A stretch of 64,000 bases of DNA, taken from the NCBI RefSeq assembly GCF_002831625.1, contig NZ_CP025116.1:2409501-2473500 (forward strand), read 5' to 3'. The position numbers and the translations under genes were made by a program. Every line of letters starts with the position of its first letter. Position 1 is the stretch's first letter. The notes beneath the pieces were generated by a model. The model was not told where the DNA came from, made no database searches, and saw nothing but the letters and a program-made list of their open reading frames with translations. This DNA is from Nonlabens sp. MB-3u-79 (GTDB lineage: Bacteria; Bacteroidota; Bacteroidia; Flavobacteriales; Flavobacteriaceae). Shown one piece after another: positions 206 through 63,128 of the stretch.

Positions 206-1144
206 GTGAAACTCCCTAAAACATACCAACTTTCTGAAATAGCTGCAATTATCAATTGTGACTATGTGGGTGAAGCCTCTTTTCCTGTTTTGGGAATGAA
301 TGAAATTCATGTGGTGACCCCAGGCGATATTGTTTTTGTGGATCACCCTAAATACTATGATAAGGCATTGCAAAGTGCCGCTACCATTGTGTTGATTAAT
401 AAACAAGTAGATTGCCCAAAAGGCAAGGCCTTACTTATTTCAGAAGATCCATTTAGAGATTTTAATAAGCTTACACAGTATTTTGTTCCTTTTTCCGCTT
501 TCGCGAAAGCGCAACTTCCCAAAAGCATTGGAGAACACTCACACATTCATCCCAGCGCTACAATAGGTAGGGATGTAGAAATAGGAGATCATACGATTAT
601 CCATGCAAATGTGACTATAGGTGATCGCTCTGTTATAGGTGATCATGTGATCATTAATGCAGGAGTAGTCTTAGGAGGGGATGCTTTTTATTACAAACGC
701 CGGCCAGATGGTTATGATAAATTATTAAGTAACGGTCGAGTGGTTATTGAGGATTATGTTGAACTAGGTGCTAATACCACTATTGACCGTGGTGTTACAG
801 GAGATACTACAATAGGTTATGGAAGTAAACTTGATAACCAAGTGCAAATAGGACATGACACCGTTTTAGGTAAACACGTTCTTATTGCCAGTCAGACAGG
901 TGTTGCAGGCTGTGTAGTGATAGAGGACGAAGTAACCATTTGGGGACAAGTAGGAATTACCAGCGGTGTAACAATAGGGAAGAAGGCAGTTATCTCTGCA
1001 AAGTCTGGAGTAAGTAAATCACTGGAAGGGAATAAAAGTTATTTTGGTATTCCTGCAGATGATTTTAGAAGTAAATACAAGGAAATAGCAGCTATAAAAC
1101 AAATTCCTGAAGCCTTAGAACTTCTTAAAAAATTGAATAAGTAA
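206..1144 (+). CDS. LpxD-like UDP-3-O-(acyl)glucosamine N-acyltransferase
   Basis: 312 residues with the LpxD layout: an N-terminal uridine-binding-like domain (about 1-105), then a left-handed beta helix of hexapeptide repeats (about 110-290) and a C-terminal helix. The segment NQVQIGHD holds the likely catalytic His217. LpxD adds the second 3-hydroxyacyl chain to UDP-glucosamine during lipid A synthesis in the cytoplasm. From knowledge of flavobacterial genomes, a main lpxD usually lies upstream in an lpxD-lpxC/fabZ-lpxA-efp run, so this would be a second paralogue; this cannot be seen here. The GTG start directly abuts the efp stop. Codons for residues 98-102 (AFAKA) are a copy of the dispersed palindrome, in the linker before the helix. 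Confidence 0.85.
   Translation: MKLPKTYQLSEIAAIINCDYVGEASFPVLGMNEIHVVTPGDIVFVDHPKYYDKALQSAATIVLINKQVDCPKGKALLISEDPFRDFNKLTQYFVPFSAFAKAQLPKSIGEHSHIHPSATIGRDVEIGDHTIIHANVTIGDRSVIGDHVIINAGVVLGGDAFYYKRRPDGYDKLLSNGRVVIEDYVELGANTTIDRGVTGDTTIGYGSKLDNQVQIGHDTVLGKHVLIASQTGVAGCVVIEDEVTIWGQVGITSGVTIGKKAVISAKSGVSKSLEGNKSYFGIPADDFRSKYKEIAAIKQIPEALELLKKLNK
496..511. repeat. Dispersed palindrome CGCTTTCGCGAAAGCG, copy 1
   Basis: Perfect 16-bp palindrome inside the lpxD-like gene, read as Ala-Phe-Ala-Lys-Ala in the linker between the two domains. Confidence 0.9.
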
Positions 1145-1234
1145 TAGTTAATAGTTTAACGAAAAGATAGAATTTTATTCTAGGTTAACATTTCATTCTT
1201 ACCTAGTTTAGCACTCCATTAAAAGCTTTTATAA

Positions 1235-1609
1235 ATGTCTGTTGCAGCAAAGAAAATAGTACAAAAATTTTTAGATTCTGACGTGTTTGTTAACGTTGAA
1301 GAGTTTGATCATTACATACATAAGGATCTTAAAATGCATTGGCATGCAAGCTCTGGGTATAGAGAGTTTAGTTACGATGATTATCACAGACTCAGTCAGT
1401 CTACAGCATCTTCCTATGAAAGTATGAGGTCTGAGGTGACGCATATGATCAGTGATAAGAAAGAAGTAGCAGCGAGATTTACAGTTTATGTAAGAACAAT
1501 TGAAAACCCAAGAGAAGAAATTCCTGTTGGCTATTTTGTTTCTATCTTTAAGTTAGAAGACGATAAAATAATAGAGGTGCACCAATCCAGTCACCCATCA
1601 CAAGGTTAA
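1235..1609 (+). CDS. NTF2/SnoaL-like small protein
   Basis: 124 residues whose pattern (N-terminal helices, a Trp/His-rich HWHASSGYREFS turn, then strands ending in KIIEVHQSSHP) fits the cone-shaped NTF2/SnoaL fold. Members range from small-molecule isomerases to catalytically silent binding proteins, so no reaction is assigned. It has no signal peptide and should be cytoplasmic. It sits between the lpxD-like gene (91 bp upstream) and sucD (30 bp downstream) on the same strand, so cotranscription with sucD is likely. Fold assignment is moderately sure, function unknown. Confidence 0.75.
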   Translation: MSVAAKKIVQKFLDSDVFVNVEEFDHYIHKDLKMHWHASSGYREFSYDDYHRLSQSTASSYESMRSEVTHMISDKKEVAARFTVYVRTIENPREEIPVGYFVSIFKLEDDKIIEVHQSSHPSQG

Positions 1610-1639
1610 ATTAAGAATACTCCATATAAATTATAAACA

Positions 1640-2512: not shown

Positions 2513-2520
2513 ATTCTACA

Positions 2521-2564: not shown

Positions 2565-2583
2565 ATATAAAACCAACCTACTT

Positions 2584-3330: not shown

Positions 3331-3342
3331 AAAAACAATTTC

Positions 3343-5361
3343 ATGACCGTACTCTGGATGATTATTGCTGCAGTAGTAGCTGCGTTAATAGCTCTTTTTC
3401 AATACGGTTATATAGGTGTTTATAAAAACACCAAAAGAAAACCGTGGTTTGCGCTATTGCGCTTTATCACGGTTTTTTGTATTTTATTGTTGTTTATTGC
3501 CCCAAGGTTTGACTCTAAAACTTATGAATCTCTTTTACCTCAGTTGGTAATTATGGTTGATAATTCTAAATCAATGGACTATTTAGAGGCATCGGGTACA
3601 GTTCAAAAGGATTTGCAATTATTACAAGAAAATGAGCAACTCAATTCAAAATTTGAGATGCAAAGCTTCCAGTTTTCTGACGTTATTCAACCTTTAGATT
3701 CCTTAAGTTTTGATCAATCAGAGACAGACTTAGGTATGGCGATTGAGCAACCTCAAGAACTTTTCAAGAATAGAAGTAAAGCTGTCGTTATTCTTACAGA
3801 TGGTCATCAAACTACTGGAAATAGCTATGCATATGTTCCAGTGGATGATAAAACCAGTTTGTATCCAGTCATTTATGGGGATACGACTTCCTATGCAGAT
3901 GTGCAAATCACCAATATAAATGTGAATAGGTATTCCTATCTCAATAATGAATTTCCAGTGGAGGTATTTGTAGCCTATCAAGGCACTGAAGAGGTCACTT
4001 TAAACTTTACAGTAACTCAAGGAAATAAAACGCTGCACAAGGAATCATTTTCTTTTGACGCAAAAAAACGCGCGGCTATTGCCAGTTTTAATTTAACGAG
4101 CACTTCTGTGGGGACACAGTCAATGCTCGCAACCGTACAAACCCTATCTCAGGAGAAGAATACAAAAAATAATTACCAAAGTTTTGCAGTGGAGGTCATT
4201 GATCAACAGACCAATGTACTTATTTTAAGTGACCAAATGCACCCAGATATAGGAGTACTCAAGAAAGCGATCGAATCTAACCAACAACGCAAGGTAAGCA
4301 TCAAGAATACCTCAGATCCCTACGATTTCAATGAGTATAATTTGGTAGTGATGTATGGTGTAAGTTCCGCTTTCGCGAAAGCGTATAGCCAAAAAGCACA
4401 AACCAATAAAAACACATGGATCATCACAGGAGCTGATCCTGATTGGAATTACATGAACGCCAATAATCCTTTATTTCAAATTGACGCAAGTAATGAATAC
4501 GATGAGGCGCAACCTATTCTCAATGATTCTTATGCCTCTTTCAATCTAGAGCAACTTAATTTTGAAGATTATCCACCTATTAAGGTTCCTTTTGGGGATT
4601 TGATATTTAATACCAATGTAGATGTTCTTTTTTATAAGAAAATAGGAAGTATCGCGACCACACAACCTATATGGTTTACCTATGAAAACGCCGATTCTAA
4701 ACACGCAGTAACCTTAACGAGTGGTTTATGGAGGTGGAGAGGCCAAAGTTTTCTTAATAATAAGGACTTTAAAAACTTTGATGACCTAGTAAGTAGTCAA
4801 GTTCAGTATCTTGCAAGTAATAAAAAGAGAAATAGAATAGAAGTGTTTTATGAGTCTTTTTATTATCAGAATAAAGCTATTGTTGTTAATGCTCAATATC
4901 TCGATAAGAATTTTGAGTTTGAAGATAACGGTATCTTGAATATGACTTTAAGATATAAGGAAACTAATGAAATAGTCACGAGACCCTTTGTGTTGAGTGG
5001 CAATTCCTATGTAGTAGATTTAAGTGGTTTGAATGCTGGAGATTATGCCTTTACTGTTCAAGTAGAGAACGATCAATTATCTCGTTCTGGATCTTTTAGT
5101 ATTTTAGATTATGATATCGAAAAGCAACAAGTGAATGCTAGCGATGTCGGTATGAAAAAATTGGTAGGGTCTTCCAATGTTTTTTATCAAGGACAAATGG
5201 ATCAGTTGATGGCTCAACTAAATAGTGACCCATTATTACAAACAGTAGAAAGAGCAACCATAAAGCAAAATAGTCTTATCGACTGGAAAGTGATACTGGT
5301 AGTGATCCTTTTATTGTTAGGTTTAGAATGGTTTTTAAGAAAATATAACGGATTAGTTTAA
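3343..5361 (+). CDS. VWA-domain membrane protein
   Basis: 672 residues. Two N-terminal membrane segments (about 5-25 and 36-53) precede a von Willebrand A domain with a complete metal-binding site: DNSKS at 73-77, a Thr in ETDLGMAI, and LTDGH. A long extracytoplasmic part of beta-rich sequence follows. A last membrane helix (about 645-662) ends in a short basic tail. The layout is like BatA/BatB-type and other Bacteroidota VWA membrane proteins, thought to assemble envelope complexes. The fabG and prohibitin neighbours are 12 bp away on each side, so this looks like one operon. The function is not known. A palindrome copy at 4368-4383 encodes AFAKA in the periplasmic region. Confidence 0.8.
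   Translation: MTVLWMIIAAVVAALIALFQYGYIGVYKNTKRKPWFALLRFITVFCILLLFIAPRFDSKTYESLLPQLVIMVDNSKSMDYLEASGTVQKDLQLLQENEQLNSKFEMQSFQFSDVIQPLDSLSFDQSETDLGMAIEQPQELFKNRSKAVVILTDGHQTTGNSYAYVPVDDKTSLYPVIYGDTTSYADVQITNINVNRYSYLNNEFPVEVFVAYQGTEEVTLNFTVTQGNKTLHKESFSFDAKKRAAIASFNLTSTSVGTQSMLATVQTLSQEKNTKNNYQSFAVEVIDQQTNVLILSDQMHPDIGVLKKAIESNQQRKVSIKNTSDPYDFNEYNLVVMYGVSSAFAKAYSQKAQTNKNTWIITGADPDWNYMNANNPLFQIDASNEYDEAQPILNDSYASFNLEQLNFEDYPPIKVPFGDLIFNTNVDVLFYKKIGSIATTQPIWFTYENADSKHAVTLTSGLWRWRGQSFLNNKDFKNFDDLVSSQVQYLASNKKRNRIEVFYESFYYQNKAIVVNAQYLDKNFEFEDNGILNMTLRYKETNEIVTRPFVLSGNSYVVDLSGLNAGDYAFTVQVENDQLSRSGSFSILDYDIEKQQVNASDVGMKKLVGSSNVFYQGQMDQLMAQLNSDPLLQTVERATIKQNSLIDWKVILVVILLLLGLEWFLRKYNGLV
4368..4383. 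repeat. Dispersed palindrome CGCTTTCGCGAAAGCG, copy 2
   Basis: Perfect 16-bp palindrome within the VWA gene, read as AFAKA in the same codon phase as copy 1. Confidence 0.9.
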
Positions 5362-6373: not shown

Positions 6374-6847
6374 TTATCGGTATATACGGGTGTCTGCTAG
6401 ACCTGCTATGATCCATTTGTCATCGATAAAGAAAAGGGTAAACTTATTGGTCCCTATATGGGAGAGAAAATTATTGTAATAAAATTCATAAGTAGTGGAA
6501 ACCGTTGCTATTTGTGTGTCTCCAGCAAAACTAATTTCTATAAGTCGTTCTTCAAAAGGAATGCTGTCTGGAATACTAGCGATGTTTTTAAGAAACTGCG
6601 AGGCTTCAGTGGTGCTTAATTTGCGGTCTTCTCCATTCACAGACATAGAAGTCAGCGGGATATTCATAAGCATGGATTCTTTTAATGCGGTCGTATCTTG
6701 TGCGTGAAAATGCTTAAAAAAAGTTTTTACGGCACTGATAGCAGTAGGTTTTTCAATAGATACAATGGTAGAATCTTGTGGTAGAGTTTGTTGAGAGTTT
6801 GCTTTCGCGAAAGCGAGAATACAAATAATAGGAATTAGAAGTCTCAT
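6374..6847 (-). CDS. Secreted NTF2-like protein of unknown function
   Basis: 157 residues with a signal peptide (about 1-16: [16 protein letters not shown]). The rest resembles the NTF2/SnoaL fold, with a helical first part ([20 protein letters not shown]) followed by strands ending [19 protein letters not shown]. This type is common as exported proteins in Flavobacteriaceae, with no known reaction. The palindrome copy at 6801-6814 supplies the AFAKA just before the probable signal peptidase cut. It is transcribed away from panB, 59 bp apart. Confidence 0.75.
6801..6814. repeat. Dispersed palindrome GCTTTCGCGAAAGC, copy 3
   Basis: Perfect 14-bp core encoding AFAKA at the end of the signal peptide of the 6374-6847 gene. 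Confidence 0.88.
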
Positions 6848-9519: not shown

Positions 9520-9655
9520 TTTTAGTGATTACTATTCCGTTTTTGCAGCTCTAGACTTCGAGAAGCTGAGAATAGCGATGCCGGTATTGATGTCTTATTT
9601 AGATGAGGCTTTTGCGAAAGGACTTTTGACAGGTCATAAAGTGCCAGCATTATAA
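9494..9655 (+). pseudogene. Possible gene remnant after murA
   Basis: A 53-codon open frame without a good start follows murA in another phase. Its end reads MPVLMSYLDEAFAKGLLTGHKVPAL before a TAA. It looks protein-like but matches nothing I recognise. The AFAK part contains a broken palindrome copy (GCTTTTGCGAAAG near 9608-9620). It could be a decayed gene or a chance frame; an ATG at 9578 would give only 25 residues. Confidence 0.25.
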
Positions 9656-11625: not shown

Positions 11626-12738
11626 TTATTTTAAAATCCATTACTGTTTTAGTCAAATAAGCATGATAAGCGCTAGGTATGTCATGTGTCCATTTTTGTT
11701 AATTAAGTCTTATCAACATCCGGTCTATTTTGAGAAATTAATTCCACGACTAATATTGTCCCAAAAGCTGCCTCAATAGGATTAAAGCTTATTAAAGAGG
11801 TAAATGCAATTCCTCATCAATTAGGGTGAAAGACCTGTTTAAAAGACTTCTTTTTAAATTTCATCAAAAGGAGGGAACAACAAGCGATTTGTATCGCTAG
11901 AATGATATAAATAAAAACGCTACTATTGTCGTTATGTTGTGGGTGTCATATCCACGCAGCAACCCATAGAGAACTAAAACACCATATTGGTCTGACGGTG
12001 CATTCTTCTTAGTTGAACGCTTGAAAAGCCTTGTTTGCCAGTGACTATCCCATATAGAATATTCGAGACTATTCCCAAATACAGGGGTATTATTACAGTC
12101 GTTTTAGGAGCAACACTTACAAAATAGTAGCGTGTTAAAATAATTGGTATTAAGAGCAGTCTAAATATGATTAATGCTTATGGAATAAGCATAAGTTCCT
12201 TTATTTTGAAAGCTCAAATCTATTGCGTTTTTCCAAGGATCATTTGTGTTGACTCCTAATGTTGTCCTTTTATTTTATGAAAAATACACAATGAATAAAC
12301 AAGAGCTTGTTATTACCCGCTTTAGCGAAAGCTTAACGAGTATCATCATCTTTTATATAACAAGTGGCAGAGGTGCTAGAAATAAGTTACTACGTCGCTT
12401 ATAGGCGCCTTCATGGCATTTTCAAACACCAACTCAAACAATCTACTTTATTGACCAATCCTTCCACTAAAGTAAGAGTTCGATTTTTTAATAAAATGGG
12501 ACAAAAAATAAACGCTCTAAAAGAATCTCTTGAGCGTTATGAACTATTTGATTTTTAAAACAATAGAGACTCAATCAAATAAATCTAAATTATAATAGGT
12601 GTTATGAGAAGTAGTATCCTTGGATGGAACCTGCTATGTGTACTTGTTTTATGTATGTTAAAAATAGACCGACAGACGAATAGCTGTTATTAGTAAACTC
12701 AGATAAAATTAAGTTTTATAAAACCAGGAAAGCACTAT
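11626..12738. other. 1.1-kb gene-poor region with apparent gene remnants
   Basis: No intact gene is seen. On the - strand, 11817-11945 reads as a 42-residue segment with a hydrophobic stretch (VFIYIILAIQIACCSLLLM) but no start, perhaps the tail of a decayed membrane protein. A regulator-like remnant occupies 12291-12558 and is listed separately. A broken copy of the dispersed palindrome lies at about 12319-12332. The region looks like decaying accessory DNA. Confidence 0.45.
12291..12558 (+). pseudogene. Frameshifted helix-turn-helix-like remnant
   Basis: From the ATG at 12291 the frame reads MNKQELVITRFSESLTSIII and runs into a stop. In the next frame, from about 12361, the sequence continues as VAEVLEISYYVAYRRLHGIF and ends at 12558. 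Joined, the two give about 90 residues. The segment LEISYYVAYRRLHG looks like the recognition-helix region of small Bacteroidota HTH regulators, as I remember them. The later part seems shortened, suggesting a shift plus a deletion. It is most simply a dead regulator gene; a short expressed protein from 12364 (GTG) is the alternative. Confidence 0.35.
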
Positions 12739-13859: not shown

Positions 13860-13875
13860 CGCTTTCGCGAAAGCG
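13860..13875. repeat. Dispersed palindrome CGCTTTCGCGAAAGCG, copy 4
   Basis: Perfect 16-bp copy in the intergenic space between the small membrane-protein gene and the aldehyde dehydrogenase gene. No T run flanks it, so it is not a typical terminator. Confidence 0.9.
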
Positions 13876-18498: not shown

Positions 18499-18545
18499 GT
18501 GATAAATTTTAGAGCGTGAAGATAATAATATGGTCGCAAAAACGC

Positions 18546-18573
18546 TTGTATTCTATTGGGTTTCTTATTTTTG
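18546..18573 (+). promoter_or_regulatory. Promoter of the DUF4294 gene
   Basis: TTG at 18546-18548, a 17-bp gap and TATTTTTG at 18566-18573 match the Bacteroidota promoter pattern fully. It lies inside the 5' extension of the longest reading frame (ATG 18530), so the true start must be downstream, at 18599. Confidence 0.65.
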
Positions 18574-18598
18574 GAACACTTTTAGAGCATACTTGTTT

Positions 18599-19393
18599 AT
18601 GATAAAGAATTTAATTTTTTTACTAGTGGCTTTTGGTGGTCTCGCTTTCGCGAAAGCGCAAGAAACACCAACACCTAAACCTGTTTCAAAGGACTCGATA
18701 GTAAAGTCAGTAGAGCAATATTTCTATGTAGACGGCGACTCATTGAGTGCCATAGAACTGGATAAGGTACTTTTGATACAAGACTTAAACTTTGACAGCA
18801 GGTACGAACGCATTCGTTATTTAATCTTAAAACGTAAGGTGGAAAAAGTATGGCCTTATGCAAAACTGGCGGCCGAACGTTTAACCGTACTCGATAAACG
18901 ACTGGCTTCTTTAGAAACTACCAACCAAAAGAAGAAATATTCTAAGATGGTTGAGGACTATATCGAAGACGAATTCAAAGAAAAACTTAAAAAATTTTCC
19001 AAATCTGAAGGACAAATACTCATTAAGCTCATTCACCGGCAGACTGGAAACACAGCTTATGACTTATTAAAGCGCTTAAGAAGTGGATGGAGTGCTTTCT
19101 GGTTTGATAAAACAGCCAGCGTTTTTGATATGTCTCTAAAAGAAGAGTACCGACCAGAAACCGTTGTGGATGATTTTTACGTGGAAGACATTCTTCTCAA
19201 CAGCATTATTGATGACAAGTTAGAAGATCAAAAACCAGCTATTGAGTTTGATTATTTTGCTGCTCGAGCCCATTGGAAAACGTATGAAAAAGAACTTCCA
19301 GCAAATTATGACAGCATCCAACTCGCTGCAAGAGCAAAACGCATACAGGAATACAACGAGAAAAAAGCACGTAAAGCCAAGCGTAAAAATTAA
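18599..19393 (+). CDS. DUF4294-domain secreted protein
   Basis: 264 residues from the chosen start MIKNLIFLLVAFGG, which gives a proper signal peptide ending AFAKA-QE. A longer frame from 18530 would put odd aromatic sequence before it and start ahead of the promoter. The conserved part (about 50-200: QDLNFDSRYERIRYLILKRKVEKVWPYAKLAAERL and later IKLIHRQTGNTAYDLLKRLRSGWSAFWFD) fits DUF4294, found in Bacteroidota and of unknown function. The C-terminus is very basic (KKARKAKRKN). The palindrome copy at 18643-18658 forms the end of the signal peptide. Confidence 0.88.
   Translation: MIKNLIFLLVAFGGLAFAKAQETPTPKPVSKDSIVKSVEQYFYVDGDSLSAIELDKVLLIQDLNFDSRYERIRYLILKRKVEKVWPYAKLAAERLTVLDKRLASLETTNQKKKYSKMVEDYIEDEFKEKLKKFSKSEGQILIKLIHRQTGNTAYDLLKRLRSGWSAFWFDKTASVFDMSLKEEYRPETVVDDFYVEDILLNSIIDDKLEDQKPAIEFDYFAARAHWKTYEKELPANYDSIQLAARAKRIQEYNEKKARKAKRKN
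18643..18658. repeat. Dispersed palindrome CGCTTTCGCGAAAGCG, copy 5
   Basis: Perfect 16-bp copy encoding AFAKA at the signal peptidase site of the DUF4294 protein. Confidence 0.9.
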
Positions 19394-27125: not shown

Positions 27126-27141
27126 CGCTTTCGCGAAAGCG
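27126..27141. repeat. Dispersed palindrome CGCTTTCGCGAAAGCG, copy 6
   Basis: Perfect 16-bp copy between the convergent deacylase and MscS-like genes. A poly-T tract lies just before it on the + strand, not after, so it is not a standard + strand terminator. Confidence 0.9.
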
Positions 27142-30340: not shown

Positions 30341-30388
30341 TAGATTAAAGTTGACCTTTTTTCTTGATTCTTATTTCCTTTCTGTTTT

Positions 30389-30474
30389 GCGTAACCGATT
30401 GCAACGGCATCCTTTTGTTTTTCTTTTTAAAACAAAAGATAAAGTGAAAAGCGGGACCCGTTAGGGAAACGCCC
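30389..30474 (-). other. Candidate structured RNA / dispersed intergenic element
   Basis: On the - strand the segment starts GGGCGTTTCCC and ends GGTTACGC. GCGT pairs with the terminal ACGC. Inside are a CCC-TAAC-GGG hairpin and a longer ATCTTTTGTTT / AAACAAAAGGAT hairpin, giving a three-way-junction shape. I remember similar GGGCGTT...CCTAACGC elements from many Bacteroidota genomes; their name is not certain to me. It lies between the ThiE-like gene and the thioredoxin-like gene. Confidence 0.35.
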
Positions 30475-37333: not shown

Positions 37334-38219
37334 ATTCGAAAAGTACTATGGTTTGCCTGTTTTCTATAAAATAAGGTGTTTAATTTTTAAAATTTTAACG
37401 ATTACTTGATTATCAAGACATGGAGGATTAAGATCAGCCTTTAACCTAACGCTTATGATAATCCGCTTAAGGACAACTCTACTAGGAGTCGAAGACTTAG
37501 CAAATAGCTTCTGTATAGCTGGTATTTCTGTTTTGACCGGTACAACATTTCAATGGCGCTTTTGCGAAAGCAAAACATCCAAAAAAAACACAGGTTTTAA
37601 GGGTTAAAGTGTTATTCATTTGTGAATAAAAACACGATTTTTTTGTTTTTTATTAAAAATGAGCATCTTTTTTAAGCTTTTAACGATTAACGGAATTGTA
37701 AAACATCGACGAACAACATAATTAACGGCTTTTTTAATTAATTATTAGTTAATATGAAGTACAGCTCTCCCTATTGTCTTATTCCAGGTATTGAGACATT
37801 TTTAAAAGTTTATTTGCTCCTTTTATGAAGGCTATTATTTAAATGGAAACAGCCGTTATTGTTGGGCTAGTTCAATTTTTTTGATCTTTTTTTTTACACA
37901 TAGGACATTTCCCTTTTAACCAAAATGAAACATAAACGTCACTCTTGTCAAATAAAAACAGATCAAACAATAAAAAAAAAATAGGTAAAAGATTTTACTC
38001 ATATGTTAAACGAACTGACGTTTTCCAGCTTTATTTATAATTTAAATGGTGTAATTTTAAGGATAAACGATCATTATTTTTAACAAAGATAGGTTAGCGG
38101 AATAAATTACTTTTTATCGAAGTTTAATCAGTTGTTCAAAAATAGAATTGCTTTTTTTGATTGAAGGGTGTTGTAGAATTACTTTTACTGTCAATTAGCG
38201 ATTTACATACTATACAAAT
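37334..38219. other. 886-bp divergent regulatory region between two surface-protein genes
   Basis: Very AT-rich with long A and T tracts and no reading frame of note. A broken palindrome copy (CGCTTTTGCGAAAGC) lies at 37557-37571. Such length and composition suggest a regulated promoter region or a long 5' leader for the 2092-aa gene. Confidence 0.5.
38157..38187 (+). promoter_or_regulatory. Candidate promoter of the 2092-aa surface-protein operon
   Basis: TTG at 38157-38159, a 20-bp gap and TACTTTTA at 38180-38187, one base off the TAnnTTTG consensus, 32 bp before the ATG. Confidence 0.4.
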
Positions 38220-47451: not shown

Positions 47452-47489
47452 GATATTGATCTCGCTTTCGCGAAAGCGAGATCAATATC
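47452..47489. repeat. 38-bp perfect palindrome containing dispersed palindrome copy 8
   Basis: The 16-bp core CGCTTTCGCGAAAGCG at 47463-47478 is extended on both sides by 11 bases that also pair perfectly (GATATTGATCT and its complement). It is a 19-bp arm with no loop, just after the operon terminator and without a T run. Confidence 0.92.
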
Positions 47490-50619: not shown

Positions 50620-53184
50620 CTATGCTGAATTACGACTGGCATTAATATTTCCATATAGAGATCTAGTGACCATGCGCTCATAGGTTTCTGTACTTTCAGT
50701 CACCTTTCCTGCATTGATATCTTGAACCATTTTTAAGGCATACTGCTGTATGGTTAATAATGGCAAGACTATCTTTTCTCTAGCTTGAATACTCGCTCGT
50801 CCTGCTGGCTCATTTTCCATTAATGTTTTCATTCCAGAGATCTTCAACATGTACTTTTTAGAACGCTCATATTCTGCATAAATCATCTTCCAAAACTCAC
50901 CATAAATAGGATCATGCTCCATATATGCAGTTAAAGCAAAGAATGACTTGGTTAAACTCATCATGCTATTATCTAGTAAAGTACGGAAAAATTTATTGTT
51001 TTTATATAGTTCTTCTGCCGCTTCCCAATTACCAGCTTTATCCATTGTTTCTAGCGCGGTACCTACACCGTAAAACCCAGGAACATTCTGTTTTAATTGA
51101 CTCCAAGAACCTACAAATGGTATAGCTCTTAAATCTTTAAATCTCAATTCTGCACTTCCAGCACGCTTGCTAGGGCGACTTCCTATATTGGTTTTGGCAT
51201 AATATTTTAAGGTACTCATCTGTTCCAGATAGGATAAGAACTGTGGGTGCGCTTTGAAATCTGTGTAAGCTATATAACTTGATTTTGCCAGTTGATCCAT
51301 AGTTGCTTTATCTTTTTCTGAAAAGTCATTGGCATCACTAGCGTATACGGCGTTACTCACCCCACTACTAATCATTTGCTCCAGATTGTATTGGCAGCTT
51401 TCTAACGTACCAAACTTAGAGCTAATAGTCTGGCCTTGAACTGTTAATTGAATGTGTTTAGCTTCTATTTTTGTTCCCATAGAAGCATAAAACTGGTGCG
51501 TTTGACCTCCACCACGAGCAGGTGGGCCACCTCTACCATCAAAGAATACAATAGAAATACCGTATTCCCTAGAAACGGTACTTAATGCTTCCTTAGCTTC
51601 ATAAATAGCCCAATTGGCCATTAAATAGCCACCATCTTTAGTACCGTCACTAAAGCCCAACATGATATGTTGTGTGTCATCGCGTCTTTTTACGTGAGCT
51701 CGGTAATGCTCATTTTCATAAAGTGATCGCATCACATCTGGAGCTTTTATCAGGTCTGGAACGGTTTCAAATAAGGGCACTACATCTATTTTGGGTTGTG
51801 GCATATTACACAACCTTATCATTGCATAGACCTCCATAATTTGAGAAGCCATTTGTGTATTAGAAATAATGTAACGATTACAACCTTTTTCCCCATTGCG
51901 TTCTTGGATATTTTTAATGGCGTAAATACTGCTTAACGTGCGTTGTGTGTAGTCGTCTGTAAAGTCTTTAGGATCGATAGAACCTTCTACCTGTGCCAGT
52001 ACGTTCACTTTCTCTTCTTCAGATAAGCTGTTGTAGTTGGTGGGTAGTTTCGCTTTCGCGAAAGCGAGGATCTCATCAAAAACCGCATCATGAGCACTGC
52101 TATCCTGACGTATATCTAAAGTGGCAAAATGGAAACCGAACAATTCGATTTTATGTATAAAACTATCTATTTGACCAAGAAATAAGGAGTTATGCTGCTC
52201 TATAACAGTAGATCTGATCTCGTTCATTCTATCGATAAGATCTTGAGGTGCAAACTCCAATACATCCTTTTCAAAAATAGCTTTGTAACACATGCTTTCT
52301 AGAGCCGCTAACTGCTCTTCAACGCCTTTAAAAGTGAGTCTTCTACGCAGCTTGCGTAAATCCCTATAATAATTTCTAAATATGGTGGAACGCAATCGTT
52401 TAGCCACATTTATAGTAATAGCAGTCGTAACAAACGGATTTCCATCACGATCACCACCAGGCCAAAACCCTATTTCAACAATCTGATTCTTAAACTCCTG
52501 CGGATTCTCAATATGTGTTTTAAGGTAATCGTAAATATTACCCATGGCCTGATAGAATACGTGTTCCAGATACCAAATTAAACTTACCGCTTCATCAAAA
52601 GGAGTAGGTTTTTCCTTTTTAAAGAAAGGGGTTTTACCCAATTGTGAAAGCAGTAGTTTTACCTCCTGAAGTTGATTAGCTTTAATCGCATCGCCCAGAT
52701 CATTAATAATTCCCAGAACAGAACCTGGGTAAAACTGTGTAGGGTGAGCGGTTAATACAGGACGTACTTTAAACTCTTTTAAATAAGCTGCCAGTTCTTC
52801 TGTTTTATTAAGTTCCACTGCTTCCTCTTTGACGCTACGTAAGGAACCACGCCCATCAATATTGTTGACTTTACTAAAAGCAGCATCTTCAATGGCATCA
52901 AACAACACCACTTGTCTTTCTATATACTGAATAAACCTAAAAAGCATGTCTTCTCGTTCTTTAGGACTGGTATCACGCATGTATCTTTCAAAAAAGTATT
53001 CAACGATCTCTGTGGGGTTTTTACCTTTTTCATAGCCTTTCACACACATTTCATGAAACAAGGGTAACAATCCGCCAGTATTAGAAATCTGATCAAATGG
53101 CAGGGTCATAAAAATCCCATTGAAAATCTGGTACTTAGATTCTACTTCATTTTTAAAACGTTCAATTTTTGGTAATCTTGACAT
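50620..53184 (-). CDS. ppc: Phosphoenolpyruvate carboxylase
   Basis: 854 residues, the usual bacterial length. His147 in LTAHPTQ, GFSDGTKDGG and FFDGRGGPPARGGG (the bicarbonate/PEP loop) are the PEPC signatures. The enzyme makes oxaloacetate from PEP and bicarbonate, refilling the citric acid cycle. The palindrome at 52051-52066 inserts AFAKA in a helix region (DEILAFAKAKLPTNY). The ACP gene is 45 bp upstream on the same strand, but a functional link between them is not expected. Confidence 0.96.
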   Translation of the reverse strand: MSRLPKIERFKNEVESKYQIFNGIFMTLPFDQISNTGGLLPLFHEMCVKGYEKGKNPTEIVEYFFERYMRDTSPKEREDMLFRFIQYIERQVVLFDAIEDAAFSKVNNIDGRGSLRSVKEEAVELNKTEELAAYLKEFKVRPVLTAHPTQFYPGSVLGIINDLGDAIKANQLQEVKLLLSQLGKTPFFKKEKPTPFDEAVSLIWYLEHVFYQAMGNIYDYLKTHIENPQEFKNQIVEIGFWPGGDRDGNPFVTTAITINVAKRLRSTIFRNYYRDLRKLRRRLTFKGVEEQLAALESMCYKAIFEKDVLEFAPQDLIDRMNEIRSTVIEQHNSLFLGQIDSFIHKIELFGFHFATLDIRQDSSAHDAVFDEILAFAKAKLPTNYNSLSEEEKVNVLAQVEGSIDPKDFTDDYTQRTLSSIYAIKNIQERNGEKGCNRYIISNTQMASQIMEVYAMIRLCNMPQPKIDVVPLFETVPDLIKAPDVMRSLYENEHYRAHVKRRDDTQHIMLGFSDGTKDGGYLMANWAIYEAKEALSTVSREYGISIVFFDGRGGPPARGGGQTHQFYASMGTKIEAKHIQLTVQGQTISSKFGTLESCQYNLEQMISSGVSNAVYASDANDFSEKDKATMDQLAKSSYIAYTDFKAHPQFLSYLEQMSTLKYYAKTNIGSRPSKRAGSAELRFKDLRAIPFVGSWSQLKQNVPGFYGVGTALETMDKAGNWEAAEELYKNNKFFRTLLDNSMMSLTKSFFALTAYMEHDPIYGEFWKMIYAEYERSKKYMLKISGMKTLMENEPAGRASIQAREKIVLPLLTIQQYALKMVQDINAGKVTESTETYERMVTRSLYGNINASRNSA
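52051..52066. repeat. Dispersed palindrome CGCTTTCGCGAAAGCG, copy 9
   Basis: Perfect 16-bp copy inside ppc, read as AFAKA. Confidence 0.9.
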
Positions 53185-53615: not shown

Positions 53616-54902
53616 TTAAGAACTATACTTTTTAAGTAGGACACATGCGTTTACATCTCCGAAACCGAAACTCGCCTTGGCCAAAATATTAAGATCTACG
53701 TTTGCAGAGCTTAAAGGGAAGCTGGTTTTGTCAATTAAATCAGTAATCTCAGGATGTAAAGAGCTGATATTGCTATTTCCATAGACCTTTTGCTCTTTTA
53801 ATTGTAGCACTGCTCCTACCAATTCCACACTACCTGCTGCAGCTAAGCAGTGGCCTATATAAGATTTAAAGGTATTTATAAAAGGAAACTCTGCGCCTTT
53901 ACGGTTTAAAGCGGTCGACCAATTTTTAATTTCAAAAGCATCTTTTGAAGTTGCGGTGAGATGTCCATTAATGGCATCAATCTCTGTTGCAGTTACTCCA
54001 GCATCTTTCATTGCCAGATGTATACAATCTTGTACAGCTTGACCATTAGGAGCTGTCATAGAGCCGTCAGCTCTATGTCCACCAGAATTTACAGCGCCAC
54101 CCAATACCTCTGCATAGATAGTTGCCCCTCGTTTTTGAGCACTTTCTAAATGCTCTAAAATAAAAGCTCCAGCCCCAGATCCAGGCACAAAACCTGCTGC
54201 ATCATCTGATAAAGGCCTGCTTGCATTTTCTGGATCCTCGTTGTATTTAGTTGGTAAAATCCGCATTGCATCAAATCCGCCCCAAATATAAGGTCCAGAA
54301 TCGCTAGTAGAACCCACCAGCATTTGCGATGCTTTTCCAGCAGCAATACGCTCATAGCCCATAAGAAAGGCTTCTGTACCTGTGCAGCAAGCACTAGAAT
54401 TACTGGTGACCATATTACCACAGCCTAATTCTCCTGCCAGCCAGGCACTGATACCGCTGGTCATGGTTTGAATCACGCTGGTACTTCCTAAGCGGCGCAC
54501 TTTTTTATCATCAATTAAATGAATGGCTTCCCTGAATTTTTCACCACCGCTTTGTCCAGTTCCAAAAATGATTCCCATTTCTGATAGGGCCTTTTCTGGA
54601 CCAGCGATTTCCAAACCAGCATCCTTAAAAGCTTCTTTTCCAGCGATAACACCATAAACCAGGCCACTAGCTTTTAAGCCTCTCAGTTGTAAAGGTGTAA
54701 AATTATCGGTAAGTAATTCTTCAGTAATTTGTGGGGTGCCAGACACTTGGCAGCCAAAGTTTAAATCGGCTAATTGTGGATCAAATCGTATTCCAGAGGT
54801 TTGTTCTTGTAAGGCTTTCGCGAAAGCGGAAACCCCAACGGCATTAGGTGCCACAACCCCCATTCCTGTAATAACAACTCGTCTTCTATTATTTGTATTC
54901 AT
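53616..54902 (-). CDS. FabF-like beta-ketoacyl-ACP synthase
   Basis: 428 residues of the KAS II type. The catalytic set is present: Cys172 in SNSSACCTGTEA, His315 in NGHLTATSKD, Lys347 and His352 in FKSYIGHCLAAAG. The Cys-Cys pair and HLTAT instead of the usual HGTST mark it as divergent from housekeeping FabF. It extends acyl-ACP with malonyl-ACP by Claisen condensation. The ACP gene follows. The palindrome copy at 54814-54827 encodes AFAKA near residue 26. Confidence 0.9.
   Translation of the reverse strand: MNTNNRRRVVITGMGVVAPNAVGVSAFAKALQEQTSGIRFDPQLADLNFGCQVSGTPQITEELLTDNFTPLQLRGLKASGLVYGVIAGKEAFKDAGLEIAGPEKALSEMGIIFGTGQSGGEKFREAIHLIDDKKVRRLGSTSVIQTMTSGISAWLAGELGCGNMVTSNSSACCTGTEAFLMGYERIAAGKASQMLVGSTSDSGPYIWGGFDAMRILPTKYNEDPENASRPLSDDAAGFVPGSGAGAFILEHLESAQKRGATIYAEVLGGAVNSGGHRADGSMTAPNGQAVQDCIHLAMKDAGVTATEIDAINGHLTATSKDAFEIKNWSTALNRKGAEFPFINTFKSYIGHCLAAAGSVELVGAVLQLKEQKVYGNSNISSLHPEITDLIDKTSFPLSSANVDLNILAKASFGFGDVNACVLLKKYSS
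54814..54827. repeat. Dispersed palindrome GCTTTCGCGAAAGC, copy 10
   Basis: Perfect 14-bp core near the 5' end of the ketosynthase gene, read as AFAKA. Confidence 0.88.
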
Positions 54903-57959: not shown

Positions 57960-59005
57960 TCTAACAGTATTCTTTGAGCTGTAAATCCGGGTCCAAAACT
58001 CAACATCAAACCCTTAGAGCCTTTGTTGAGCTCACGACTCATAAAGCGTTCTAAAACAAATAGAACCGTCGCGCTACTCATGTTTCCATAGATACGCAAT
58101 ACTTCTTTGGTGTCGTCTATATTTTTACCGAGTTTATGAAACAGTTCTTCTACGGTTTGTACGATCTTTTTACCTCCAGGATGGAAAATTAAATGATCAA
58201 TGTCGTTGATAGTTAATCCATTCTTTTCTAAAAACGGATGAATAATAGCTGGAAAATGACTGGCTATAGTTTCTGGAACAGATTTGTCCAACACCATTTG
58301 CAAACCACTGTTCACTAGGTCAAACCCCATCATGTGTGTTGCATCTGGGAAGTGATACATTTCATGGGCTTTTATGGTTGGGCCGTTGTCTTCTTCACAA
58401 GAAGAAAGCAATACACAGGCGCATCCATCACCAAAAATAGCAGCACTCACCATATTAGCCATAGAGAAATCATCTAATTGGAAGGTTGCCGTCGGTGCTT
58501 CTACAGCTAGTACTGCTGCTTTTTTATTTGGATTTGCTCTCAGGAAATTTTCAGCATAGATCAGTCCAGAGATTCCAGCGACACAACCCATTTCTGTAAC
58601 TGGTAAACGCACGATATCTTGTCTCATCCCCATGGAGTTGATCAAATAGGCATCAATAGACGGGATCATGATACCTGTGCAACTTACGGTGATGATGTAG
58701 TCGAGTTCTTGAGCATTCCAAGAGGCTTTTTCTAAAGCTTTCTCTATTGCCGTTTGAGCCAGTGGTACCACTTCTCTTTTATAAATATCATTGCGGTCTT
58801 GAAAAGAAGTCCTCGTAAAGACCTCTATAGGATCCATGATGGAATAACGTTTATCCACGCCTGCACCTTCAAAAATTTTGATGGTTTTACGTCTCAAACG
58901 CTCGTCCTGACCAGAAAGCCATTCTTCAACAAAGGGTAAAATGTCTTTGGTTTCCTTATAATACTGCGGCGTTACCGTCGCTACACTTTTAATTTTTACG
59001 CTCAT
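57953..59005 (-). CDS. Type III polyketide synthase
   Basis: 350 residues with the complete chalcone-synthase-type triad: Cys141 in EMGCVAGISG, His275 in FHPGGKKIVQ, Asn308 in YGNMSSATVLF. Such enzymes load an acyl starter and extend it with malonyl-CoA, then cyclise the product to a pyrone, resorcinol or phloroglucinol. Surrounding acyl-chain genes suggest a fatty starter. The start overlaps the methyltransferase gene by 17 bp and the stop overlaps the reductase gene. Confidence 0.93.
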   Translation of the reverse strand: MSVKIKSVATVTPQYYKETKDILPFVEEWLSGQDERLRRKTIKIFEGAGVDKRYSIMDPIEVFTRTSFQDRNDIYKREVVPLAQTAIEKALEKASWNAQELDYIITVSCTGIMIPSIDAYLINSMGMRQDIVRLPVTEMGCVAGISGLIYAENFLRANPNKKAAVLAVEAPTATFQLDDFSMANMVSAAIFGDGCACVLLSSCEEDNGPTIKAHEMYHFPDATHMMGFDLVNSGLQMVLDKSVPETIASHFPAIIHPFLEKNGLTINDIDHLIFHPGGKKIVQTVEELFHKLGKNIDDTKEVLRIYGNMSSATVLFVLERFMSRELNKGSKGLMLSFGPGFTAQRILLEW

Positions 59006-59723
59006 CTATTGGAATTATCCATATAAAACGGAACGACCACTTCCATGTCCATCGGTCATTTTTTACGCCTATAGCAGCTGCATATTTCTTAAAATCTCTG
59101 CCTTTAAAACCTGATGCAATACTGATCAATCCATCGTGTTTAGAGATCTCATGTTTTATAAAAATAGGGCTTATATATTTAAAAAAAAGAAAGGCAATCC
59201 TATGCCTGTGCAAGTCGTTAATAATGATACTTTTTGTTGTAATCTCTTTAAACTTGGAAAGAAAACTTACGATTTCTTCGTCATCAAAATGATGCATGGT
59301 TAAAGAGCTAATCAGAATATCACATTGCAATTCTGCTGGGTTGGTCTGCAGAATATCGCTTTCGCGAAAGCTTAACCTTGACAATCCCTCACTCTTATTA
59401 CGAGCTTTCTCAATAGATCGGGCAGCAAAATCTAGCCCAAGAAAGCTGATATTTTCTCTATTCAAATGGGCTTCTAAATAACGCAACATCTCGCCATCAC
59501 CACAACCTGCATCTACTATTACCAATGCTTGATCGGGGTGTTTTGAGACTTCTTTTTTTACCGCCTGAAGCATAAATTTAAATCCGCCTAGCAGATTATT
59601 CACCGTATTGATATCGTCAACAGCATGTTGCAAGGTGACTTCATCCAGCTTTGGATCATCCATCCATTCTGGATCGGTGTTGCGTTTATGAGATTCGTAA
59701 GTAATACTAGATAGGTTTCCCAT
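58989..59723 (-). CDS. SAM-dependent methyltransferase of the type III PKS operon
   Basis: 244 residues with a class I methyltransferase core: VIVDAGCGDGEML (about 68-80) is the SAM-binding motif, and FLGLDFAARSIEKAR, then CDILISSLTMHHFDDEE, follow. It probably methylates the aromatic or pyrone product. It overlaps the flavoprotein gene upstream and the PKS gene downstream by 17 bp each. A palindrome copy at 59358-59371 is read in a different phase here (LSFRES), the only such coding copy. Confidence 0.88.
   Translation of the reverse strand: MGNLSSITYESHKRNTDPEWMDDPKLDEVTLQHAVDDINTVNNLLGGFKFMLQAVKKEVSKHPDQALVIVDAGCGDGEMLRYLEAHLNRENISFLGLDFAARSIEKARNKSEGLSRLSFRESDILQTNPAELQCDILISSLTMHHFDDEEIVSFLSKFKEITTKSIIINDLHRHRIAFLFFKYISPIFIKHEISKHDGLISIASGFKGRDFKKYAAAIGVKNDRWTWKWSFRFIWIIPIDERKN
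59358..59371. repeat. Dispersed palindrome GCTTTCGCGAAAGC, copy 11
   Basis: Perfect 14-bp core inside the methyltransferase gene, read as LSFRES rather than AFAKA. Confidence 0.88.
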
Positions 59724-60816: not shown

Positions 60817-60820
60817 TATT

Positions 60821-60849: not shown

Positions 60850-60850
60850 C

Positions 60851-61066
60851 TTAATTAGACTCTTTATCTTTATATTTTGTCTTCTGTATAAGTTTTAAAA
60901 CTAAATAAACAACTAATAGAGTTCCAAATAAAGTCAATAAAGTGATTGCGGTGTTCATTAAAGAGCCACCTTCAGGGTCGGGACCAAAGAATACTAAAAA
61001 AGCAAATATAATAGTCAAGGTCCAAAGTACATAGCGAAAATTATCCGCCTCATCCATAAATTTCAT
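60851..61066 (-). CDS. Small two-helix membrane protein
   Basis: 71 residues with two membrane segments (about 11-27 and 38-62) and a charged tail (QKTKYKDKESN). No family is recognised. It lies between the E1 gene (61 bp upstream) and the flavoprotein gene on the same strand. An internal ATG (MDEADNF) is an alternative start. Confidence 0.6.
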   Translation of the reverse strand: MKFMDEADNFRYVLWTLTIIFAFLVFFGPDPEGGSLMNTAITLLTLFGTLLVVYLVLKLIQKTKYKDKESN

Positions 61067-61127
61067 AACTTCATTTTATTAGTTTGCTCAGGGGTGTATC
61101 AAAAGTATCATATTTATTAACTTTAAT

Positions 61128-63128
61128 TTAATATTTTAGCAACTTTTTTAATTTTTCTTTTAAATCTTGTAACGGAAGGTAATTATTTTCTAAGCCTTTT
61201 TCAAAAGGAATCGGTGTGTCAATACTTCCTAACCTCATTACAGGAGCATCTAAATATTCAAAGCATTCTTCACTAATAAAGGCTGCTATATCACTAATAA
61301 CGCTTCCTGTTAGATTGTCTTCGGTTACTAATAAAACCCTTCCTGTTTTTTGAACTGATTTAATTATCGCCTGTTTATCTAAAGGAACTAACGTTCTTAA
61401 ATCTATAAGGTCTATAGAAAGATTTTCTTCCTTGATCAATTGCTTTGCCCAATGTACTCCTGCTCCAAAAGTAATGATGGTGGCATCATTACCTACGCAA
61501 ATGTTTAATGCTTTTCCTAATTCAATATTGTAGTAACCGTCTGGAACGTCATCATAAATGGAACGATATAATGCTTTATGTTCAAAGAATAGTACTGGAT
61601 TGGGATCTTCTATGGAGGCAATTAATAAGCCTTTAGCGTCTGCTGGAGTTGAAGGGTATACGATTTTAAGTCCTGGCACGGTATAAAACCAAGATTCATT
61701 GGTTTGTGAGTGAAAAGGCCCAGCTCCTACTCCTGCTCCACAAGGCATACGTATCACCACATCTGCTTTTTGATTCCAACGGTAATAAGATTTGGCCAGG
61801 TAATTAACAATAGGATTAAAGCCGCTGCTCACAAAATCGGCAAACTGCATCTCTACGACTGCTTTCATCCCCATAATACTCAAACCCATTCCAGCTTCTA
61901 CAATTGCGCTTTCACAAATAGGGGTGTTTCTAACGCGTTCTCTTCCGTATTTTTCTACAAATCCATCGGTTATTTTAAATACTCCCCCGTATTCTGCGAC
62001 GTCTTGTCCCATAATCACCAGATTGTCATAGGCATCCATAGCTTCCTCTAGTCCATCTTTTATAGCATCTATCAAACGTATGTTTTGAGAAGAACTATCG
62101 GGATTCACTTGATTGAATGTGTGTGGTGCAAACACATCTGCCAGTTCTAGTTCTGTTGTTGATTCAGGTAAAGCTTTCGCGAAAGCGGTATCTAAACCAT
62201 CGTTGATCTCTTTTTTAAACTCCTTATTCCAGTTTTTAATTAGATCGCTAGAAATAATATGTTCTTCCAGTAAAAACTTTTCAAATCTGGATAAAGGATC
62301 TCTTTGTTCCCAATATTCCAACAATTCATCAGGCACATATTTGGTGCCACTTGCCTCTTCATGACCACGTCTTCTAAAGGTCTTGAACTCGATCAACACT
62401 GGATGAGGACGTTCCCGCATGTCATTCAATATCGCCGAAATTTTAGTGTATACTTCTATGATATTATTCCCATCTATAATATGAGATTCCATACCATAGC
62501 CCAATGCACGGTCTGCGAGGTGTTCACAATTGTATTGTTCTGAAGTAGGTGTGCTGAGTCCATAACCGTTGTTTTCTATACAGAAAAGCACCGGTAAACT
62601 CCAAACACTGGCTACATTAAGCGCCTCGTGAAAATCGCCTTCACTCGTCCCACCTTCACCAGTGAAAACCGCAGTGGCTTTACCAGTGTTGTTCATTTTT
62701 TGGGCAAGTGCAATCCCGTCTGCAACCCCTAGTTGTGGACCTAGGTGTGAGATCATCCCAATGATTTTATACTCTTGAGTACCAAAGTGAAAACTTCGGT
62801 CCCGGCCTTTGGTAAAGCCTTCTGCTTTCCCCTGCCACTGTGCAAAGAGCTTCCATAAGGGTATTTCTCGAGAGGTAAAAACACCAAGATTTCTATGCAT
62901 AGGTAAGATGTACTCATCCTTTTGCATAGCAGCGGTAAGACCTATAGAAATTGCTTCCTGGCCTATTCCAGAAAACCATTTAGAAATACGGCCTTGACGC
63001 AAGAGAATTAACATCTTCTCTTCTATCAATCGAGGCATTAGCATTTTTTTATATAAATCTATAAGCACCTTATGATCTAAGGTATTGCTGTATAGTTTTT
63101 TTAAGTCAGTTTGATCTGTATCTATCAT
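61128..63128 (-). CDS. 2-oxoacid dehydrogenase E1, fused alpha and beta subunits
   Basis: 666 residues. The alpha half (about 1-330) holds the ThDP/Mg site in FTGEGGTSEGDFHEALN and ENNGYGLSTP. The beta half (about 345-666) begins RLIDAIKDGLEEAMDAYDNLVIMGQDVAEYGGVF. This fused form of pyruvate- or branched-chain-type E1 is typical of Bacteroidota. It decarboxylates a 2-oxoacid and passes the acyl group to lipoyl-E2. Branched-chain acyl-CoA could serve as fatty acid starters (inference). E2 and E3 genes are not in the window. Palindrome copy 12 encodes AFAKA in the linker between halves. Confidence 0.93.
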   Translation of the reverse strand: MIDTDQTDLKKLYSNTLDHKVLIDLYKKMLMPRLIEEKMLILLRQGRISKWFSGIGQEAISIGLTAAMQKDEYILPMHRNLGVFTSREIPLWKLFAQWQGKAEGFTKGRDRSFHFGTQEYKIIGMISHLGPQLGVADGIALAQKMNNTGKATAVFTGEGGTSEGDFHEALNVASVWSLPVLFCIENNGYGLSTPTSEQYNCEHLADRALGYGMESHIIDGNNIIEVYTKISAILNDMRERPHPVLIEFKTFRRRGHEEASGTKYVPDELLEYWEQRDPLSRFEKFLLEEHIISSDLIKNWNKEFKKEINDGLDTAFAKALPESTTELELADVFAPHTFNQVNPDSSSQNIRLIDAIKDGLEEAMDAYDNLVIMGQDVAEYGGVFKITDGFVEKYGRERVRNTPICESAIVEAGMGLSIMGMKAVVEMQFADFVSSGFNPIVNYLAKSYYRWNQKADVVIRMPCGAGVGAGPFHSQTNESWFYTVPGLKIVYPSTPADAKGLLIASIEDPNPVLFFEHKALYRSIYDDVPDGYYNIELGKALNICVGNDATIITFGAGVHWAKQLIKEENLSIDLIDLRTLVPLDKQAIIKSVQKTGRVLLVTEDNLTGSVISDIAAFISEECFEYLDAPVMRLGSIDTPIPFEKGLENNYLPLQDLKEKLKKLLKY
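62173..62186. repeat. Dispersed palindrome GCTTTCGCGAAAGC, copy 12
   Basis: Perfect 14-bp core in the linker between alpha and beta halves of the E1 fusion, read as AFAKA. Confidence 0.88.

What the first reader, a model, noticed from the sequence alone, without database searches (positions are those of the whole stretch)
496..62186. A 14-16 bp palindrome repeated 12 times, about once per 5 kb
GCTTTCGCGAAAGC (mostly as CGCTTTCGCGAAAGCG) occurs perfectly at 496, 4368, 6801, 13860, 18643, 27126, 37274, 47463, 52051, 54814, 59358 and 62173. A given 14-mer is expected far less than once by chance in 64 kb, and more so in AT-rich DNA. Nine copies are in genes and three between genes. Broken copies at about 9608, 12319 and 37557 suggest that copies arise and decay. 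The even spacing and tolerance inside essential genes (ppc, E1) argue for a chromosome-wide role (protein binding, methylation, segregation) or a selfish spread mechanism. It recalls HIP1 of cyanobacteria in behaviour but not in sequence.
Basis: partly seen in the sequence, partly recalled or inferred. Interest (0 to 1): 0.85.

Follow-up and report, generated by a model that had tools for sequence, protein, structure and literature searches.

The report
Evenly spaced palindrome across Nonlabens chromosomes
A group of marine bacteria carries the same exact palindromic DNA signal hundreds of times, spaced every few thousand bases and kept in place while the genes around it drift, so an unknown host factor probably reads it along the whole chromosome.

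Summary
Confirmed, and stronger than reported. The genome holds 563 perfect copies of GCTTTCGCGAAAGC and none of the reversed control. The 14-mer is the centre of a wider symmetric site with T/A peaks and C-poor 5' flanks to about 19 bp, in intergenic copies too. Spacing is over-regular. Orthologous places keep the core in 32 of 39 window cases, against 6.8% of other 14-mers. Metal-resistance elements and phages, some temperate, carry it; P12024-type phages do not. In elements in motif-poor hosts it decays faster, so the maintaining factor is probably host-encoded. ParB, three methyltransferase families and a pilus-type ATPase fail as common factor. Best reading: binding site of an unidentified dimeric, chromosome-organising protein; uptake signal and Chi-like self mark remain rivals.

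The parts
497..510 (.). perfect core, in ORF 206-1144 (AFAKA)
4369..4382 (.). perfect core, in ORF 3343-5361 (AFAKA)
6801..6814 (.). perfect core, in ORF 6374-6847, at the end of an N-terminal hydrophobic stretch (AFAKA)
   Evidence: signal peptide judged by eye
9608..9621 (.). doubtful near copy, 2 mismatches, intergenic
   Evidence: G005 ortholog differs at 5 of 14
12319..12332 (.). decayed copy, 1 mismatch, intergenic; perfect in relative G005
13861..13874 (.). perfect core, intergenic, perfect in G005
18644..18657 (.). perfect core, in ORF 18530-19393 (AFAKA), perfect in G005
27127..27140 (.). perfect core, intergenic between convergent ORFs
37275..37288 (.). perfect core, in ORF 35465-37333 (AFAKA after a hydrophobic N-terminus); perfect in G002, 1 mismatch in G005
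37558..37571 (.). near copy, 1 mismatch, intergenic
47464..47477 (.). perfect core, intergenic, the palindrome runs on over all 38 bases printed; perfect in G005 and G002
52052..52065 (.). perfect core in ppc (ORF 50620-53184), variable loop; perfect in 7 of 8 relatives aligned, split by an insertion in G005
54814..54827 (.). perfect core in ORF 53616-54902 (AFAKA); perfect in 6 of 9 relatives aligned
59358..59371 (.). perfect core in ORF 58989-59723 (frame SFRES); perfect in 7 of 8 relatives aligned
62173..62186 (.). perfect core in ORF 61128-63128 (AFAKA); perfect in 7 of 8 relatives aligned

Best explanation
Each copy is the specific binding site of one host-encoded, dimeric DNA-binding protein. 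It reads a 14-16 bp palindromic core and leans on AT-rich, C-poor flanks, for a footprint of roughly 40-50 bp. Hundreds of evenly spaced sites let the protein organise the whole chromosome (anchoring, looping, compaction or segregation). Selection therefore keeps a site every few kb in most DNA that lives long in the chromosome, including mobile elements and prophages. Shown: the site, its extent, spacing, conservation in place, taxonomic range, presence on metal-resistance elements and on phage contigs (some with integrase or transposase), and a higher share of one-mismatch copies in motif-poor hosts. Inferred: the dimeric reader, that it is one protein, that it is host-encoded, and that its job is chromosome organisation.
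For: Exact 14-mer: CTTTCGCGAAAG 82 observed against 0.01 expected in 463.5 kb. Symmetric flank signal, 4.8 bits per side over 372 sites, also in 81 intergenic sites. Over-regular spacing and count variance per 20 kb below the mean, 2.16 against 3.48. No ori-ter trend: Spearman -0.23, p 0.30 over 23 stretches. Motif kept in 32 of 39 orthologous window cases against 11,933 of 175,217 other 14-mers; all against all, 279 of 348 site-by-genome pairs perfect. Copies at host-like density on an element of about 78 kb in G120 (16 copies) and on phage contigs, also inside phage genes. None within 2 mismatches in Nonlabens phages P12024S and P12024L. One-mismatch to perfect ratio 23:57 in elements of motif-poor hosts against 25:165 in motif-rich genomes, Fisher p 0.003.
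Against: No reader protein was identified. Three gaps of 19-20 kb occur in the first 507 kb; the two looked at in part hold ordinary genes such as PDH E1/E2, an ABC transporter and Rho, so a site every 5 kb is not a strict need. Spacing on the G120 element is uneven, 222 to 12,499 bases. Known organisers with palindromic sites favour or avoid ori or ter (recalled: MatP, SlmA, Noc); this motif does neither. Density rises with GC content (Spearman 0.65, p 0.0007). T every third base in the flanks is not explained by a plain dimer.
Confidence: 0.42

Rival explanations
1. DNA uptake signal: naturally competent cells prefer DNA with the motif, and recombination of taken-up DNA spreads and maintains copies, as with DUS and USS.
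For: Density, even spacing, coding location, exactness, conservation in place and a strong core with weaker flanks recall Pasteurellaceae USS (recalled). P12024S and P12024L lack it.
Against: T2S/T4P ATPase PF00437 is above cut-off in 0 of 13 motif-rich genomes and 2 of 19 motif-poor ones; weak matches below cut-off occur in most of both groups. Other uptake machinery was not sought. A palindromic uptake signal is not known to me. Phages carry it within their genes.
Confidence: 0.2
2. Chi-like self mark: a recombination or defence nuclease, or a protein guarding against it, recognises the site and spares or repairs self DNA.
For: Spacing of about 5 kb is like E. coli Chi (recalled). 5' flanks are G/T-rich and C-poor with T every third base, as RecA-type loading might prefer (recalled). 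Absent from P12024-type phages.
Against: Known Chi sites are 5-8 bases, asymmetric and read on single strands (recalled); this is a long palindrome. AddAB/RecBCD were not examined. Phages with integrase or transposase carry it and the P12024 type does not, although both would gain from it.
Confidence: 0.2
3. HIP-type site created and kept by DNA methylation and repair.
For: Iterated palindrome in coding DNA, as HIP1. The paper links HIPs to orphan methyltransferases (PMC4390886, passages).
Against: G000 and G008 lack PF01555, PF00145 and PF02086 altogether; the three are missing from 6, 5 and 10 of 12 motif-rich genomes. TCGCGA outside the motif is not enriched (27 observed, 26.5 expected). 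Flanks to 19 bp exceed a methyltransferase's usual reach (recalled).
Confidence: 0.06
4. A selfish repeat, or a regulon-type operator without chromosome-wide role.
For: High copy number. 9 of 23 own intergenic copies lie between divergent ORFs, which make up 12.2 of 61.0 kb of intergenic DNA, a mild excess. At ppc, four of five relatives without the motif align with a gap near the site.
Against: Of 45 pairs in which the aligned genome lacks the motif, 29 have no gap in the core and 23 none within 20 bp, so copies mostly come or go without an inserted unit. 75 of 104 own copies lie inside ORFs. Spacing is over-regular.
Confidence: 0.08

Closest known systems
HIP1 and other highly iterated palindromes of cyanobacteria
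   Same: Palindrome repeated hundreds of times, mostly in genes, restricted to certain lineages
   Different: Core of 14-16 bp rather than 8; symmetric flanks to about 19 bp; none of the three methyltransferase families tested is common to carriers
DNA uptake sequences (Pasteurellaceae USS, Neisseria DUS)
   Same: Even spacing, exactness, conservation in place, strong core with weaker flanks (properties of USS/DUS recalled)
   Different: Palindromic; no PF00437 ATPase above cut-off in motif-rich genomes; present on phages and mobile elements
Chi sites
   Same: Spacing of about 5 kb, genome-wide (Chi recalled)
   Different: Long palindrome rather than short oriented octamer
parS/Noc, SlmA, matS sites
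   Same: Palindromic core of similar length read by a dimer (recalled)
   Different: Hundreds of copies with no ori or ter preference; chromosomal ParB tested and disfavoured

Membership tests
HIP (highly iterated palindrome) | strong over-representation of a palindrome genome-wide | tested here: met
   563 copies, reversed control 0; CTTTCGCGAAAG 82 against 0.01 expected
HIP (highly iterated palindrome) | methyltransferase common to carriers that reads the inner sequence | tested here: not met
   PF01555, PF00145 and PF02086 missing from 6, 5 and 10 of 12 motif-rich genomes; none of the three in G000 or G008. Other families, such as type I and IIG, not tested
DNA uptake sequence | sequence-dependent DNA uptake | not testable with these tools
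   needs transformation assay
DNA uptake sequence | type IV pilus type uptake machinery | tested here: not met
   PF00437 above cut-off in 0 of 13 motif-rich genomes; other pilus or competence genes not sought
DNA uptake sequence | even spacing and depletion of close pairs | tested here: met
   first 100 sites of G000 and 61 of G004
Chi site | asymmetric, orientation-biased short motif | tested here: not met
   exact palindrome with symmetric flanks
Chi site | modulates RecBCD/AddAB | not tested
   enzyme genes not searched; effect needs experiment
ParB/Noc site (parS, NBS) | ParB-family reader particular to carriers | tested here: not met
   each of 28 genomes has a ParB of about 300 residues with like DNA-binding region by eye; a second, 616-residue ParB-domain protein in motif-rich G014 and G019 is absent from the other seven motif-rich ones and present in motif-poor G264; parS matches kept in all nine motif-rich genomes
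matS/SlmA-type macrodomain site | enriched in or excluded from ter | tested here: not met
   no trend with ori distance over 23 stretches

The most novel reading that the evidence does not exclude
A previously undescribed chromosome-wide DNA addressing system of marine Flavobacteriaceae: one host protein reads a palindrome of 40-50 bp at hundreds of regularly spaced sites. Long-term residents of the chromosome, including mobile metal-resistance elements and transposable phages, come to carry the address, while P12024-type phages do without.
Probability: 0.42. Interest if true: 0.9.

Novelty: new variant of a known kind. Interest (0 to 1): 0.78.

Why it matters
Genome-wide iterated motifs have repeatedly led to basic machinery such as DNA uptake, Chi recombination and chromosome segregation. 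This one is unusually exact, palindromic and regularly spaced, occurs in cultured marine genera, and is not tied to the usual suspects tested here. It also marks DNA that has probably resided in these hosts, so it may trace mobile elements that moved to other genera, and its decay there gives a natural experiment.

Tried and rejected
ParB with altered specificity: disfavoured; parS matches kept in nine of nine motif-rich genomes. 11 of 19 motif-poor genomes had no parS match within one mismatch; not pursued. DNA methyltransferases PF01555, PF00145, PF02086 as common factor: rejected. Pilus-based uptake: no PF00437 ATPase above cut-off. A codon-usage origin of the flank pattern: rejected, intergenic copies show it. 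Long gaps as foreign islands: not borne out, the parts looked at hold ordinary genes. An element-encoded reader: disfavoured by the higher share of one-mismatch copies in motif-poor hosts. The stretches there were mostly chosen because they hold perfect copies, which works against the result, but related copies are not independent. Similar palindromes in other genera: none of 10 or 12 bases above two copies in 10 sets sampled, 20-60 kb each. Motif shared at orthologous places between Nonlabens and Dokdonia: 0 of 5 and 0 of 4 testable sites, too few to say much. Single origin on a ParB tree: the best tree needs three changes and 0% of 200 bootstrap trees need only one, but well-supported branches do not rule out one origin; one gene only. 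Copies at matching places in two related transposable phages: not shown, no alignment covers them. BLAST of a 42-base consensus in phage and plasmid records: one and four records, none of Flavobacteriia. TCGCGA enrichment outside the motif: none. Close pair of sites as a clue to a special gene: only sugar-metabolism-like ORFs seen, not followed. Literature: no description of the motif found by the searches. Papers: PMC4390886 seen as passages only; PMC5217627 searched for six terms with no occurrence; all others seen only as search listings. Recalled, from no call: properties of parS, Noc, SlmA, matS, USS/DUS, Chi and RecA; the accession numbers of P12024S and P12024L, and that these phages are virulent (no integrase is annotated).
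Full report
WHAT IS THERE. The 14-mer GCTTTCGCGAAAGC occurs 12 times perfectly in the window, with three near copies; 0.12 matches with up to two mismatches are expected. The window lies at 2,409,501-2,473,500 of a single contig of 3,184,776 bases, which holds 563 perfect copies and none of the reversed pattern. In a sample of 463.5 kb (window plus 20 stretches), CTTTCGCGAAAG occurs 82 times against 0.01 expected under a third-order Markov model, and there are 81 perfect 14-mers against 12 with one mismatch. Nine window copies are in ORFs and three between them. In 104 own copies, 48 use frame 0 (AFAKA), 12 frame 1, 15 frame 2 and 29 are intergenic or unassigned, where 85.9% of the sample is coding. 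At three window places AFAKA follows a hydrophobic stretch near the N-terminus and could serve as a signal peptide end (by eye).

THE SITE IS LARGER THAN THE 14-MER. Symmetrised flanks of 104 own copies, and of 372 distinct copies from Nonlabens, Dokdonia, G234 and G250, show C at the next position in 84% and 88%, T at 3 and 4 bp, further T peaks at 7, 10 and 13 bp, and few C up to about 19 bp. The 372 come partly from loci fetched because they hold the motif, and include orthologs. The same pattern is seen in 81 intergenic copies, so it is not a codon effect; the 45 and 37 copies in frames 1 and 2 show it more weakly. Flank information is about 4.8 bits per side. Among 44 one-mismatch copies, 36 changes fall at core positions 1, 5 and 6, counted from the outside in.

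DISTRIBUTION ON THE CHROMOSOME. For the first 100 sites (to 507 kb) the spacing CV is 0.69 against 0.99 (sd 0.10, minimum 0.72 in 5,000 random placements), and two spacings are below 1 kb where 17.6 are expected. In a second genome, G004 (61 sites), CV is 0.69 against 0.98 (sd 0.12) and 4 spacings are below 1 kb against 14.5. Counts per 20 kb have variance 2.16 against mean 3.48, show no trend with distance from the origin (Spearman -0.23, p 0.30), and rise with GC (0.65, p 0.0007). The origin was placed by a parS pair at 961,580 and 963,473. Three gaps of 19-20 kb occur among these 100 sites; the parts of two that were looked at hold ordinary genes such as PDH E1/E2, an ABC transporter and Rho.

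TAXONOMIC RANGE. All 23 genomes of genus g1 examined hold 288-857 copies; of 36 other genomes in that hold none and one holds 6. Among 397 family genomes, 80 have a match: four of g1, G234 with 408, G250 with 857, and 74 others with 1-19; 317 have none. In 118 genomes of the phylum, nine have a match, all but the own genome with 1-4. Ten sampled sets from other genera showed no comparable palindrome.

CONSERVATION. Where window sites could be aligned to ten relatives, 32 of 39 orthologous places keep the perfect core, against 11,933 of 175,217 (6.8%) of other 14-mers in the same alignments; in relatives other than G005 the background is at most 3.8% (alignments). Comparing eleven Nonlabens genomes all against all, 279 of 348 site-by-genome pairs are perfect, 24 have one mismatch and 45 have lost or never had the site; of these 45, 29 show no gap in the core and 23 none within 20 bp (pairs are not independent). 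In ppc the motif encodes AFAKA in a loop that varies: of five relatives lacking it, one aligns without a gap and four with one, and G005 has it split by an insertion. None of nine testable sites was shared between Nonlabens and Dokdonia. The exact motif is thus common to genera while the few testable places are not.

MOBILE ELEMENTS AND PHAGES. Several of the low counts in other genera are clustered (listed places). All 16 copies of G120 lie within 78 kb; those of G330 lie in two stretches of 11 and 7 plus one copy. ORFs sampled from two hosts (L031, L034) encode RND efflux, outer-membrane efflux, copper-type ATPase, multicopper oxidase and ArsP-type proteins; six ORFs of the G120 element have relatives in the own genome stretch L063 at 62-87% protein identity. 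Conjugation genes were not tested, so 'element' is used loosely. In motif-poor hosts there are 57 perfect and 23 one-mismatch copies, against 165 and 25 in motif-rich stretches, Fisher p 0.003; orthologous copies are not independent. I read this as decay without the host factor. Of 120 viral stretches fetched (scan stopped at its limit), 24 hold 33 copies with flank score 9 or more, where random flanks average 5.5 and own sites 10.8; the other stretches hold only copies with lower scores. On these 24 loci the perfect to one-mismatch count is 28 to 7, in between. Of 20 proteins scanned from such contigs 17 match phage families: portal, head, connector, baseplate, primase and others; transposase is found on two and integrase on one of the contigs scanned, so those I call temperate, while for the rest it is unknown. 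Copies lie inside a head gene, a head protease gene and an ATPase gene. Nonlabens phages P12024S and P12024L have no copy within two mismatches, and 80 stretches (831 kb) around related terminases, one of them P12024L by length and identity, have no copy within one mismatch; the hosts of the others are unknown.

WHO READS IT. Each of 28 genomes, nine of them motif-rich, has a ParB of about 300 residues with a like DNA-binding region (by eye); two motif-rich genomes (G014, G019) and some motif-poor ones have a second ParB-domain protein. All nine motif-rich genomes have two or three parS matches within one mismatch. This speaks against ParB. Methyltransferase families PF01555, PF00145 and PF02086 were sought in 12 motif-rich and 5 motif-poor genomes: they are missing from 6, 5 and 10 of the 12, and the own genome and G008 lack all three. 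Other methyltransferase families were not sought. PF00437 is above cut-off in 0 of 13 motif-rich and 2 of 19 motif-poor genomes.

MECHANISM. A palindrome this long with symmetric flanks most simply means a dimeric protein on double-stranded DNA. Over-regular, genome-wide spacing with retention in place means that selection acts on having sites spread widely. Presence on elements and phages, with a larger share of imperfect copies once elements sit in motif-poor hosts, points to a host function acting on long-term chromosomal DNA. I therefore favour chromosome organisation (0.42), then uptake (0.20) and a Chi-like self mark (0.20). The flank pattern of T every third base and C-poor 5' strands is unexplained and would suit a process on single strands, which is the main reason to keep the Chi-like rival.

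NOVELTY. The searches named in Tried and rejected found no description of this motif. It resembles HIP1, DUS/USS and Chi in part, but misses a defining feature of each where tested. It is best filed as a new variant of genome-wide iterated motifs with an unknown reader.

Noticed in passing
window 56738-57137: Tandem array of a 6-base unit (GTTCGA/TTCGAG type) with a 151-base higher unit; the same 10-mer recurs at L057 and L067 of the own genome
   Followed up: partly
L067:5619-5745, L060:13329-13497, L057:4302-4491, L066:10179-12279: Other short repeated words in the own genome (CTCATACCTC, CACATTCCAC, and GCACTAGCCC with first copies 210 bases apart)
   Followed up: no
window 30384-30462: Flavo-1 RNA (RF01705), 64.1 bits, the only Rfam match in the window at the gathering threshold
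   Followed up: no
L103 near 12048 (G005 ppc): An insertion adding 21 bases splits the palindrome near its centre in ppc of the closest relative compared
   Followed up: partly
window 38220-44498: 2,092-residue ORF with Ig-like and CHU_C type IX secretion domains, inside a 10 kb stretch without perfect motif
   Followed up: no
L384-L386 (G120, G330): Non-palindromic 10-mer ATTTCCGAAG found 11 times in 60 kb, 138 times expectation, in the genus next to Nonlabens on the ParB tree; could be another iterated motif or a local repeat
   Followed up: no
L031, L034 and elements in G120, G330; L063 of the own genome: Copper/heavy-metal resistance genes shared between Nonlabens and other genera, traceable by the motif
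   Followed up: partly
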